Virus record (IMG/VR): IMGVR_UViG_3300006924_000271
Location: 1-20,665 of that record
Source: a virus
Direction: 5' to 3' (one strand)
DNA length: 20,665 bases
The position numbers were made by a program, and so were the translations under genes. Positions within the stretch are counted from its first letter, which is position 1. Every line of letters starts with the position of its first letter. This document shows positions 15,997-18,536 of this stretch, piece after piece. The notes under the pieces were generated by a model. That model ran no database searches. It worked only from the letters and a program-made list of their open reading frames with translations, and had not been told where the DNA came from.

Positions 15997-16773
15997 TTAA
16001 AGTGTGATTAATTGACTTATTTTTTTCACTTTAATTTGATTGAGTTCACCCGTTGCCATTATTTCGGCAAAAATCTTTTGACCCTTTGGGGTTACCAATC
16101 CCTGCATGTGCTTTGTCTTGTTTGTTGTGTTTTCTGTAATCTTAACTTCAAAAAGTCCATTGTCAATATATTTTTGATATGGTAGGTTTTTCTTGTCTTT
16201 TGATTTGATATAATCACTTTCCCTTAACCACTCAATAAACTTATTTGGCTTTACCCCTAACAAAGTTCCCGTCTTTTGATAACCAAGGCTTTTTTCAATA
16301 CTCACCCGTTCAAGTAGTGTTGTTTTTTCCTCTTGACTCTTAATTAATTTTTGTGTGAGTTCTTGATTAAGCTGTTCTTTTTCTTTTAACTCTTGACCTG
16401 CTTTTAATAACAGATCGGCAACTGTTAATTCAAGTGGTTTTTGTTGCTCTATATATTGCCTTTCCACTTCAATGAAATATTCCCTTACCTACTTGCCCTT
16501 TACCGTCCTTTGCATCATTGCAATGTTTTTTGCCGTGTCAATTGTTAGAAAATACTCAATACCAATTTGACCTGTTTTTGAAAGCTCTACTTTTTGGGTG
16601 ACCTTAATATAGTCTTGATCTTCTATAAAACCCTGAAGAAATCTTTTTATCCAAGCAGAAAAGTCTTTCTTTGATTTTAAATTTTTATGTAATTCCCTTG
16701 CACTTACGGTATTTTTAATATCACCAACAAAGTTATTACTCTTAATATTAAAAAGTTGTATATTTTTTTTCAT
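15997..16773 (-). pseudogene. AntA-ANT antirepressor interrupted by an in-frame TAG
   Basis: Read in one frame this is a 258-codon antirepressor. The AntA domain (residues 15-94: SARELHKNL, FSAWIKRFLQ, EYFLTIDTAKNIAMMQRTV) continues directly into the ANT/KilAC domain (LGYQKTGTLLGVKPNKFIEW, GLVTPKGQKIFAEI). A single TAG at 16489-16491 splits it after KGK; the codons on its far side still read VREYFIEVERQY, the conserved continuation of AntA. The stop replaces a position where Gln is common, so C-to-T (CAG to TAG) is the simplest cause. The downstream half has a possible GTG start (16467). It is either a recent knock-out or a gene relying on amber suppression. Antirepressors bind and inactivate phage repressors. 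Confidence 0.75.
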
Positions 16774-16792
16774 AATCTTGTTTATATATTAA

Positions 16793-17419
16793 TTATTTAT
16801 TTAATAATTTTTTAATTACATAGCCTAATAATGCCTTAACTACATAACCACAATTCCACAACATACCATCCTCTTGTCTTACTCTGACAAACTCACAACT
16901 AATTTCATTTATTATGTCCTGCTCTCTTTTAACATCTTCCTCTTGTTGGTTTTTATGATGCCCTTCGTCATATTCAATAGCTATATTTAAGTCTTTTATA
17001 TAGTAATCTATATTGTAATTTAATACTTTATGTTGTCTTTGACCTTTAATATCAAGAGGTTCTAATATTTTTTCTAGTGTATCAAAGAATTCTATTTCTG
17101 CTCTAGTATTTAATATTGTATAATCGTCTAGTGCTTGTAAAAGCTGTCTTTTTAATTCAATGGGTGCATATGTTTTTTGAATGCAACTAATGGCAACTGG
17201 AATGGTTAAAAAGTATTCTTTTAAAGTTGCATTATTTCCCTTCCTTTTTTTATGAAGCCTAATATAGTCTTGATTTTCTGTAAAGTCTTCAAGATATTTC
17301 TTAACCCAAGTGGAATAATCTTGTTTACTCTCCAAGCTTTTGTGAAGTTCCCTTGCGTTTACAGTCTGCTTGACATTGTTGTTAAATTGTTTAGACTCTA
17401 ATTGAATTAGTTTATCCAT
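16793..17419 (-). CDS. AntA-domain protein fused to a PD-(D/E)XK-like nuclease domain
   Basis: 208 residues. Residues 15-80 are an AntA antirepressor domain (NARELHKSLESKQDYSTWVK, EYFLTIPVAIS) closely similar to the adjacent gene. Instead of an ANT domain, residues about 105-185 have the order of DUF559/Vsr-like nucleases: helix around E110, RQHKV, IDYYIKDLNIAIEYDEGHH with D138, E149 and D151, then a basic helix and CEFVRVRQ. Nuclease activity is inferred from that pattern. The ATG at 17419 follows a 187-nt leader holding a C4-like RNA, so expression is probably controlled at RNA level. It could act as antirepressor, nuclease or both. Confidence 0.7.
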   Translation of the reverse strand: MDKLIQLESKQFNNNVKQTVNARELHKSLESKQDYSTWVKKYLEDFTENQDYIRLHKKRKGNNATLKEYFLTIPVAISCIQKTYAPIELKRQLLQALDDYTILNTRAEIEFFDTLEKILEPLDIKGQRQHKVLNYNIDYYIKDLNIAIEYDEGHHKNQQEEDVKREQDIINEISCEFVRVRQEDGMLWNCGYVVKALLGYVIKKLLNK

Positions 17420-17447
17420 TTTCTTACTTTTAAATTAATTATTATTT

Positions 17448-17512
17448 TGGTGGGGAAGTTGCTATTTCTAGCAATTGAACCACGGGATAACATACAAACC
17501 CCAAACCTCCCC
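17448..17512 (-). ncRNA. C4-like antisense RNA (tRNA-like, probable RNase P substrate)
   Basis: On the minus strand the 65-nt segment begins GGGGAGG (17512-17506), which pairs over 7 bp with CTTCCCC (17458-17452), followed by A and CCA (17451-17448). This is an acceptor stem with a CCA end. Inside, GGG/CCC closes a loop containing TATGTTAT; GTGGTTCAATT is free; TTGCTA-GAAA-TAGCAA forms a GNRA-capped hairpin. There is no anticodon or T-arm, so it is not a tRNA. P1/P7 C4 and P4 CI RNAs are known to be cut by RNase P at such stems and to silence antirepressor or lytic genes. It lies directly in front of an antirepressor gene, and two parts are complementary to the leader at 17559-17586. Family assignment is by architecture, not by alignment. 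Confidence 0.62.
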
Positions 17513-17558
17513 AAAAAGAAAATGTTTTTTTGAATGGAAAATATTCATTAAGATGTCA

Positions 17559-17589
17559 TATGTTATTAATCCGTGGAGGCTCAATTCCA
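17559..17589 (-). promoter_or_regulatory. Target hairpin complementary to the C4-like RNA
   Basis: Minus strand: GTGGA-ATTGAGCC-TCCAC (17589-17572) forms a hairpin whose loop is complementary to GGTTCAAT of the RNA (one G-U). CCACGG (17576-17571) and ATAACATA (17566-17559) are also exact complements of CCGTGG and TATGTTAT in the RNA, in the same order. Placed upstream of the RNA, it is in the position of seqA of P4. Confidence 0.6.
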
Positions 17590-17591
17590 CC

Positions 17592-17642
17592 GTAGGTTCT
17601 ACCTACAAATTAATAATATAACAAAATTGATAATTGTCAATA
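17592..17642 (-). promoter_or_regulatory. Antirepressor promoter with 5' stem-loop and operator-like palindrome
   Basis: Minus strand: TTGACA (17635-17640), 16 bp, TATTAT (17613-17618), 6 nt, then stem-loop GTAGGT-AGA-ACCTAC (17606-17592). The spacing matches the other module copies, so transcription likely starts near 17606. A near-palindrome ATTGATAATTGTCAAT (17626-17641, plus strand) covers the -35 box and could be a repressor operator. Confidence 0.68.
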
Positions 17643-17659: not shown

Positions 17660-17720
17660 ATGATATTATATAACTGGAAAAAGTCAAGCTAAAATATCGT
17701 AATATTTACCAATAAGTCAA
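17660..17720 (-). promoter_or_regulatory. Upstream promoter-like sites of the antirepressor leader
   Basis: Minus strand: TTGACT (17682-17687), 16 bp, TATCAT (17660-17665), followed by ATATTGAAG as in the consensus leader but with no stem-loop. A further TTGACT (17715-17720) with a poor -10 (GATATT, 17693-17698) lies just upstream. With the site at 17635 these make three stacked -35 boxes ahead of the antirepressor. Confidence 0.45.
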
Positions 17721-17770
17721 GGGTTTTGGATCGTTTTTTTGGTTTTTTTAGCATCTTATTTTTTAATTGA

Positions 17771-18319
17771 TTAGTTTTTACATACAACAACATCACCTCT
17801 TATAGTAAAACCCATCAAACCCTCAGGGTCTGCAAAGTATAAAGTCATTATACCGCTATCTTTGGGGTGTTGCCAATAAATACTATTATAGCTTTCTATC
17901 ATTTTAGAAAATGCCTGTGTAAGTTTATTAATAGCGTCTATATTTAATAAAACCTGCTTATCCATTGATTGGTTTTCCCTGCATAATCTAGTTTGAACAC
18001 TTTTGTAATCTGGTAGTTTTACATTGCATTTTGGTATTGTATCAAGCTTGTAGTTGTCTTTAATCTGTTTAACAACGGAATCAATATGTGCTTTAGGTAT
18101 TGCATGACTTCCAACTTCTATATTTTGAAAATATTGCAACATGTCCTCACATGTAATCTCAGCGTTTAATAAAGCCTTACCGATGGTTGAAAAAATAGAA
18201 ACTCTGTCCTCTTCTTTGACTATGTTGATATAGTTGAACGGATCGCCTTCTTCTGGTCTAGTGATTTTTTTAAATTGCTGAAATATTGCAATTAGTCTTT
18301 TGTGTTTTGCTTTTGACAT
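17771..18319 (-). CDS. Hypothetical protein, M7 cassette
   Basis: 182 residues. The N-terminal half is basic and helical (KHKRLIAIFQQFKKITRPEE); the C-terminal part ends in strands (GIMTLYFADPEGLMGFTIRG). Low-level helix-rich content and mixed charge; no family recognised. It is a single-gene cassette divergent from dnaB, so a replication-related or early role is possible by position only. The start has the ATTAACAAATCATAA leader. Confidence 0.65.
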   Translation of the reverse strand: MSKAKHKRLIAIFQQFKKITRPEEGDPFNYINIVKEEDRVSIFSTIGKALLNAEITCEDMLQYFQNIEVGSHAIPKAHIDSVVKQIKDNYKLDTIPKCNVKLPDYKSVQTRLCRENQSMDKQVLLNIDAINKLTQAFSKMIESYNSIYWQHPKDSGIMTLYFADPEGLMGFTIRGDVVVCKN

Positions 18320-18354: not shown

Positions 18355-18409
18355 GAAGTAGCAACTGCTAACTTCATATATATATTATAGCAACTACAAA
18401 ATAAGTCAA
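18355..18409 (-). promoter_or_regulatory. Promoter with 5' stem-loop (copy M7)
   Basis: Minus strand: TTGACT (18404-18409), 16 bp, TAATAT (18382-18387), 6 nt, then a long hairpin with arms GAAGT/ACTTC and AGC/GCT around AGTT (18375-18355, one bulged base). It drives the 17771-18319 gene. Confidence 0.7.
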
Positions 18410-18536
18410 GGGTTTTGGGTCGTTTTTTTGGTTTTTTTCGGTCTTTTTTAATAATACATATATTACAAAAAATACCTTTTTAAATATTAAAGGGTTTATT
18501 TATTTTAAATTTTGTTTAATATATTAAGGGGTGGTG

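What the first reader, a model, noticed from the sequence alone, without database searches (positions are those of the whole stretch)
17473..17589. Upstream hairpin whose loop is complementary to the RNA, like P4 seqA/seqB
Three blocks of the leader (AATTGA with GCC, CCACGG, ATAACATA) are complementary, in order, to GGTTCAATT, CCGTGG and TATGTTAT of the RNA. One block is displayed in the loop of GTGGA/TCCAC, as in kissing antisense systems. The target lies 5' of the RNA, as in P4 but unlike P1, where it is 3'. Intramolecular pairing in the same transcript might even act as a timer.
Basis: partly seen in the sequence, partly recalled or inferred. Interest (0 to 1): 0.72.

Follow-up and report, generated by a model that had tools for sequence, protein, structure and literature searches.

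The report
Antisense-RNA leader of a phage antirepressor
A phage carries, in front of a gene for an antirepressor protein, a small folded RNA and a matching target just upstream in the same transcript, an unusual version of the antisense switches known from phages P1 and P4.

Summary
The complementarity is real. On the minus strand, leader 17586-17559 pairs antiparallel with 17494-17473 of a folded RNA directly before antA. The best duplex is -21.7 kcal/mol; about 0.9% of shuffled RNAs do as well in this leader, though three other places in the 42.7-kb phage record score better.

The nearest known systems are C4 (P1), CI (P4) and IsrK (Gifsy-1). The claim that P1's target is only 3' is wrong: the P1 record marks a1/b1 5' of c4, and Rfam has that element as a family. 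In reference tests, 31 of 37 C4 loci and 21 of 30 sRNA-Xcc1 loci had a significant 5' target.

The window differs: no Rfam match, the spare hairpin lies 3' of the recognition strand, no 3' target, and no intrinsic terminator after the target (28 of 37 C4 loci have one). No relative was found, so covariation could not be tested. Best reading: a divergent C4-like antisense leader that keeps antA off; the silencing step is not shown.

The parts
17613..17640 (-). sigma-70-like promoter TTGACA-16-TATTAT; predicted start near 17606
   Evidence: consensus scan, 11 of 12 matches; not shown by experiment
17592..17606 (-). 5'-terminal hairpin GTAGGT/ACCTAC
   Evidence: fold
17573..17590 (-). hairpin GTGGA/TCCAC whose loop shows the first target block
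   Evidence: fold
17559..17586 (-). 5' target, a1/b1-like: a1 17586-17578, middle block 17576-17571, b1 17566-17559
   Evidence: duplex -21.7, p = 0.009; coordinates
17514..17558 (-). spacer between target and RNA, without intrinsic terminator
17448..17513 (-). C4-like RNA: closing helix 17513-17505/17459-17451, hairpin 17502-17484 with recognition loop 17497-17489 (b'), single strand 17483-17474 (a'), GAAA hairpin 17473-17460, tail ACCA 17451-17448
   Evidence: fold, coordinates
17407..17493 (-). possible short leader ORF, 28 codons, ATG in the recognition loop, ends past the antA ATG
   Evidence: 382 of 2000 shuffles give as much, so weak
16793..17419 (-). antA: AntA antirepressor domain with C-terminal DUF559 domain
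   Evidence: Pfam
16489..16773 (-). second AntA gene
   Evidence: Pfam
15997..16467 (-). KilAC (ANT) domain gene
   Evidence: Pfam

Best explanation
It is the leader of a phage antirepressor operon, controlled by a C4/CI-type antisense RNA. A promoter at 17640-17613 gives a transcript that begins with a hairpin, then a target (17586-17559), then a folded RNA (17513-17448), then antA. The RNA is probably cut out of the leader; its acceptor-like stem plus ACCA suggests RNase P (inferred). The free RNA shows its recognition bases in a hairpin loop (17497-17489) and a neighbouring single strand (17483-17474), pairs with the 5' target of newly made leaders and so lowers expression of antA (inferred). 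In unprocessed transcripts the same two parts pair in cis. Shown here: complementarity, fold prediction, gene context, and that the same 5'-target layout is general in C4 and sRNA-Xcc1 loci. Not shown: transcription, processing, trans pairing and the silencing step. As there is no 3' target and no intrinsic terminator, silencing would have to work by factor-dependent termination, cleavage of the duplex, or hiding of a coupled leader ORF; I hold the first (a P4-like outcome) slightly likelier than the others.
For: Local complementarity p = 0.005 to 0.009, as strong as P1's a1/b1 (-21.3, p = 0.02) and P1's a2/b2 (-20.7, p = 0.01) in the same test. Same order of target halves and similar distance to the RNA as in C4 and sRNA-Xcc1 loci. 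AntA gene directly downstream. CCACC tail as in 25 of 37 C4 loci. Promoter placed so that the transcript starts just before the target.
Against: No Rfam family matches. Hairpin order differs from C4 and sRNA-Xcc1. No 3' target, no terminator. Three better duplex sites in the record. The fold of the RNA alone is only modestly better than shuffles (z about -2 to -2.5). No relatives, hence no covariation.
Confidence: 0.55

Rival explanations
1. Cis switch as in Gifsy-1 IsrK/orf45/anrP. The 5' target pairs with the RNA region of the same transcript and hides the start (ATG 17493, in the recognition loop) of a short ORF that is translationally coupled to antA; processing or a trans-acting RNA shifts the balance.
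For: Cis pairing is the minimum-energy fold, 6.1 kcal/mol better than with the C4-like fold forced; 22.7 target-RNA pairs expected. Tested precedent in Gifsy-1 (PMC4825925, section 21 read). The 28-codon ORF runs past the antA ATG.
Against: 382 of 2000 shuffles give such an ORF. The Shine-Dalgarno-like GGGGAGG is 12 nt from the ATG. There is no terminator to make a short IsrK-like RNA.
Confidence: 0.2
2. The leader is only a long imperfect hairpin (an inverted repeat from about 17591 to 17449) that controls stability or RNase III cleavage of the antA mRNA; no free antisense RNA exists.
For: The whole leader folds better than shuffles, z = -3.3, 0 of 200 as good; the pairing extends to GGTGG with CCACC at the base.
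Against: It does not explain the acceptor-like stem with ACCA or the loop and single-strand layout that matches C4-class RNAs.
Confidence: 0.15
3. Chance complementarity in an ordinary leader.
For: Three better places elsewhere in the two strands of the record; own RNA only 4th of 76 on this leader.
Against: p = 0.005 to 0.009 in just the place where C4-class loci carry a target.
Confidence: 0.1

Closest known systems
C4 antisense RNA of phages P1/P7 (Rfam RF01695) with its 5' element c4-a1b1 (RF03163)
   Same: RNA in the leader of an antirepressor operon; target halves in the same order 5' of the RNA; three-way fold with a recognition loop and a recognition single strand; CCACC tail.
   Different: No covariance-model match; the spare hairpin is 3' of the recognition strand, not 5' of the recognition hairpin; no 3' target at a start codon; no terminator after the target.
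CI RNA of satellite phage P4 with seqA and seqC
   Same: 5' target in the same transcript and a folded antisense RNA behind it (PMC4825925, passages).
   Different: P4 also has a 3' target and an intrinsic terminator after the 5' target; the window has neither.
IsrK / STnc1160 / anrP of prophage Gifsy-1 (RF01394)
   Same: Self-paired long transcript before an antirepressor gene, possible coupled short ORF (PMC4825925, section 21).
   Different: No isrK match and no terminator in the window.
sRNA-Xcc1 family (RF02221)
   Same: 5' target significant in 28 of 38 places, 3' target in 4 of 38 by the same test; several lie directly before antirepressor genes.
   Different: No covariance-model match in the window; sRNA-Xcc1 keeps the C4 order of hairpins and has a terminator in 27 of 38 loci.

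Membership tests
C4 antisense RNA (RF01695) | covariance-model score at or above gathering | tested here: not met
C4 antisense RNA (RF01695) | spare tetraloop hairpin 5' of the recognition hairpin, recognition strand directly before the closing helix | tested here: not met
   fold against the Rfam structure printed
C4 antisense RNA (RF01695) | target 5' of the RNA complementary to loop and single strand | tested here: met
   p = 0.009; but no match to model RF03163
C4 antisense RNA (RF01695) | 3' target at the ribosome-binding site of the next gene | tested here: not met
   -10.7, p = 0.78
C4 antisense RNA (RF01695) | lies in the leader of an antirepressor operon | tested here: met
C4 antisense RNA (RF01695) | processing by RNase P | not testable with these tools
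   only the acceptor-like stem with ACCA is seen
P4 CI / attenuator type | intrinsic terminator between 5' target and RNA | tested here: not met
P4 CI / attenuator type | pairing with the 5' target causes premature termination | not testable with these tools
   needs transcription assay
IsrK cis switch (RF01394) | target and RNA region paired in the long transcript | tested here: met
   prediction only
IsrK cis switch (RF01394) | short ORF coupled to the antirepressor gene | tested here: inconclusive
   ORF present, but in 382 of 2000 shuffles too
sRNA-Xcc1 (RF02221) | covariance-model score at or above gathering | tested here: not met

The most novel reading that the evidence does not exclude
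This phage has an independently built, permuted C4-like switch in which target and antisense are each other's only partner inside one transcript, with no 3' target and no terminator: a self-antisense leader that must act by cis pairing or factor-dependent termination. It would sit beside a wider rule that the data here suggest: C4 and sRNA-Xcc1 RNAs are one class of antirepressor regulators whose 5' targets are attenuators, where the RNA captures an antiterminator arm next to b1 and lets a terminator form.
Probability: 0.2. Interest if true: 0.65.

Novelty: new variant of a known kind. Interest (0 to 1): 0.45.

Why it matters
In P1 the 5' sites a1/b1 are still marked putative in the record. 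The reference survey made here suggests that such 5' sites are half of a general antisense-controlled attenuator. A natural locus with only the 5' site and no terminator is a clean place to ask what the 5' site does alone. It also shows that present covariance models can miss members or look-alikes of this class.

Tried and rejected
Relatives of the window RNA: AntA, DnaB and the neighbouring protein in viral contigs gave only the identical 42.7-kb record or distant helicases; the RNA core and the promoter repeat as DNA patterns gave only that record; blastn against phages and plasmids gave short chance pieces; a one-sequence covariance model found nothing convincing in 94 loci beyond itself and only noise in 398 Pseudomonadota genomes (best E 0.05 per genome); a closing-stem pattern gave 79 stretches, one of them the record itself and none of the other 78 a convincing relative (some read as tRNAs by eye).

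Rejected: the RNA as a tRNA (ARAGORN found none in the window; the TTCAATT block forms no T arm). Rejected: the CrcZ and DGCR5 hits, far below gathering scores. Rejected: an intrinsic terminator in the spacer. Rejected: a 3' target in the next 150 nt.

Limits: the recognition part of C4 and sRNA-Xcc1 was cut by fixed model positions; 100 shuffles per reference locus, so the smallest p there is 0.01; P4's seqA lies at or beyond the edge of the 150 nt tested. The stem detector was written after seeing the window. Shuffle tests count loci, not independent events. Of 36 C4 loci held (L104-L109, L114-L143) L109 was dropped as below the Rfam cut-off; P1 and P4 were added, giving 37. The cross-pairing used 29 of 30 loci (one upstream stretch too short). 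Only 20 of the 31 ORFs found behind sRNA-Xcc1 places were scanned with Pfam.

Full report
What is there. The window is a virus record of IMG/VR, 99.99% identical over its full length to part of a 42.7-kb record (L001, L018-L020). G+C is 32%. On the minus strand lie an AntA gene (16793-17419), a second AntA gene and a KilAC-type gene. The 5' leader of the first AntA gene holds the finding. A good sigma-70-like promoter, TTGACA-16-TATTAT, ends at 17613, which puts the start near 17606. The transcript would begin with a hairpin (17606-17592), continue with a second hairpin (17590-17573), a spacer, a folded RNA (17513-17445) and, after about 30 nt, the antA start at 17419.

All three leader blocks and their partners are at the stated places and in antiparallel order, but CCGTGG and GGTTCAATT overlap by two bases, so the first two leader blocks compete. 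The duplex is stronger than for most shuffled RNAs: 5 of 1000 reach it in the 120-nt leader, and p = 0.009 for a 25-nt recognition part against 150 nt. It is not unique by energy: three other places in the phage record score better; by hand from the ORF list they lie in coding stretches, one on the opposite strand. Cross tests are mixed: this RNA prefers its own leader to 75 others, but three of 75 other RNAs, richer in G+C by eye, bind the leader better.

The RNA. Alone it folds into a three-way junction: a 9-bp closing helix, a hairpin with a 9-nt loop, a 10-nt single strand, a GAAA hairpin and a tail. Seven of the closing pairs followed by ACCA look like a tRNA acceptor end; the same stem occurs in stretches that read as tRNAs (L190, L241, judged by eye). 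This suggests a substrate of RNase P, as reported for phage C4 precursors (PMC5320573, passages); processing here is inferred. The tail CCACC is present in 25 of 37 C4 loci. No Rfam family matches at gathering scores, and C4, c4-a1b1, isrK and sRNA-Xcc1 are absent even among weak matches.

What it works like. P1 c4 is the nearest model. The P1 record shows putative targets a1 and b1 5' of c4, and targets a2 and b2 3' of it at the icd start. Rfam holds the 5' element as c4-a1b1, and Weinberg et al. 2010 list it (PMC2864571, passages; the only paper in the library with that name). P4 CI RNA has seqA upstream and seqC downstream (PMC4825925, passages).

Reference survey. I tested the recognition part of 37 C4 RNAs (35 loci, plus P1 and P4) against 150 nt on either side. 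A 5' target was significant (p at most 0.05) in 31 of 37, a 3' target in 31 of 37, both in 26 of 37. The own leader was the best of 37 leaders in 25 cases and the own downstream stretch in 18. For sRNA-Xcc1 the 5' target was significant in 7 of 8 antirepressor-linked places and 21 of 30 genome loci, the 3' target in 1 of 8 and 3 of 30; the own leader was the best of 29 in 16 cases, the own downstream stretch in 2. The window gives 5' p = 0.009 and 3' p = 0.78: a 5'-only layout, by this test closer to sRNA-Xcc1 than to C4. A looser look is fairer to the 3' side: the best 3' duplex touches the Shine-Dalgarno of the next ORF in 29 of 37 C4 and 17 of 38 sRNA-Xcc1 loci (no control was made).

Terminators. 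Between the 5' target and the RNA an intrinsic terminator lies in 28 of 37 C4 loci (7.7 expected) and 27 of 38 sRNA-Xcc1 loci (6.2 expected); the window has none (one search agrees; a stricter search gave 18 of 37 and 16 of 38). Making the target unavailable, as if bound, raised the computed probability of the terminator by more than 0.2 in 22 of 55 loci and lowered it by as much in 2 of 55. In many loci the bases after b1 can pair with the first arm of the terminator (GCGG with CCGC, GGCGC with GCGCC; read). This suggests an antisense-controlled attenuator for the class. I do not know whether this is in print: my searches were made, and the older P1 and P4 papers tried are not held.

Cis pairing. 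In the window's primary transcript target and RNA pair with each other in the minimum-energy fold (-53.1 against -47.0 with the C4-like fold forced). 22.7 target-RNA pairs are expected; at least 6 are expected in 31 of 38 sRNA-Xcc1 and 19 of 37 C4 loci. In Gifsy-1 the long IsrK transcript is translationally inactive, and a short ORF behind the terminator is coupled to the antirepressor anrP (PMC4825925, section 21 read). The window has an ORF of 28 codons (17493-17407) that starts in the recognition loop and runs past the antA ATG, but 382 of 2000 shuffles give as much.

Relatives. Of 83 AntA leaders examined (L021-L103), only L024, the window's own phage, has such a closing stem within 100 nt of the match start; four others have one 232 nt or more away. 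Rfam scans of 80 loci (79 IMG/VR loci and L022) found C4 in L026 and L076, sRNA-Xcc1 in L022, L036, L074, L100, L101 and twice in L102, isrK in L026 and int-alpA in L053. None of the 94 sources searched with the model of the window RNA holds a relative of it apart from its own record, so covariation could not be tested.

Verdict. The finding is real and belongs to a known kind of regulation, of which it is an unusual variant. It should not be filed as a C4 RNA: three defining features were tested and not met. It works like one in layout. The silencing step is open.

Noticed in passing
L144-L173, L011, L022, L036, L074, L100, L101, L102 (sRNA-Xcc1 places): sRNA-Xcc1 (RF02221, no clan in Rfam) looks like a C4-type antisense RNA: own 5' target, terminator behind it in 27 of 38, and antirepressor-type domains (Bro-N, KilA-N, P22_AR_N, Rha, AntA) in 11 of 20 downstream genes scanned, 7 of 16 without those reached through AntA. 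In the passages read of PMC2996969 and PMC12189769 it is a virulence-linked or vesicle RNA, without mention of antirepressors.
   Followed up: partly
C4 and sRNA-Xcc1 leaders (L003, L009, L104-L173): 5' target, then an arm that can pair with the following terminator, then an intrinsic terminator, then the RNA: looks like a general antisense-controlled attenuator.
   Followed up: partly
17711-17767 and 18400-18455: A 57-base repeat (87.7% identical) with CGAYCCAAAACCCTTGACTTATT on the minus strand stands before both antA and the gene at 17771-18319; perhaps a shared operator and promoter. Found in no other IMG/VR record.
   Followed up: partly
16489-17419: Two AntA genes in tandem, 70.8% identical over 106 bases; the first carries a DUF559 endonuclease-like domain in place of the usual C-terminus.
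   Followed up: no
L019 and L020 (rest of the 42.7-kb record): The phage carries S-adenosylmethionine synthetase, ThyX-type thymidylate synthase, thymidylate kinase, both ribonucleotide reductase subunits and an RNA ligase. The large reductase ORF seems to hold an inserted intein-like stretch (from memory of such motifs, no domain hit). I saw no integrase in the ORF lists.
   Followed up: partly
L053:2358-2430: int-alpA RNA (RF02996) lies directly before an AntA gene; no 5' or 3' target was found with the cut used (p 0.90 and 0.59).
   Followed up: partly
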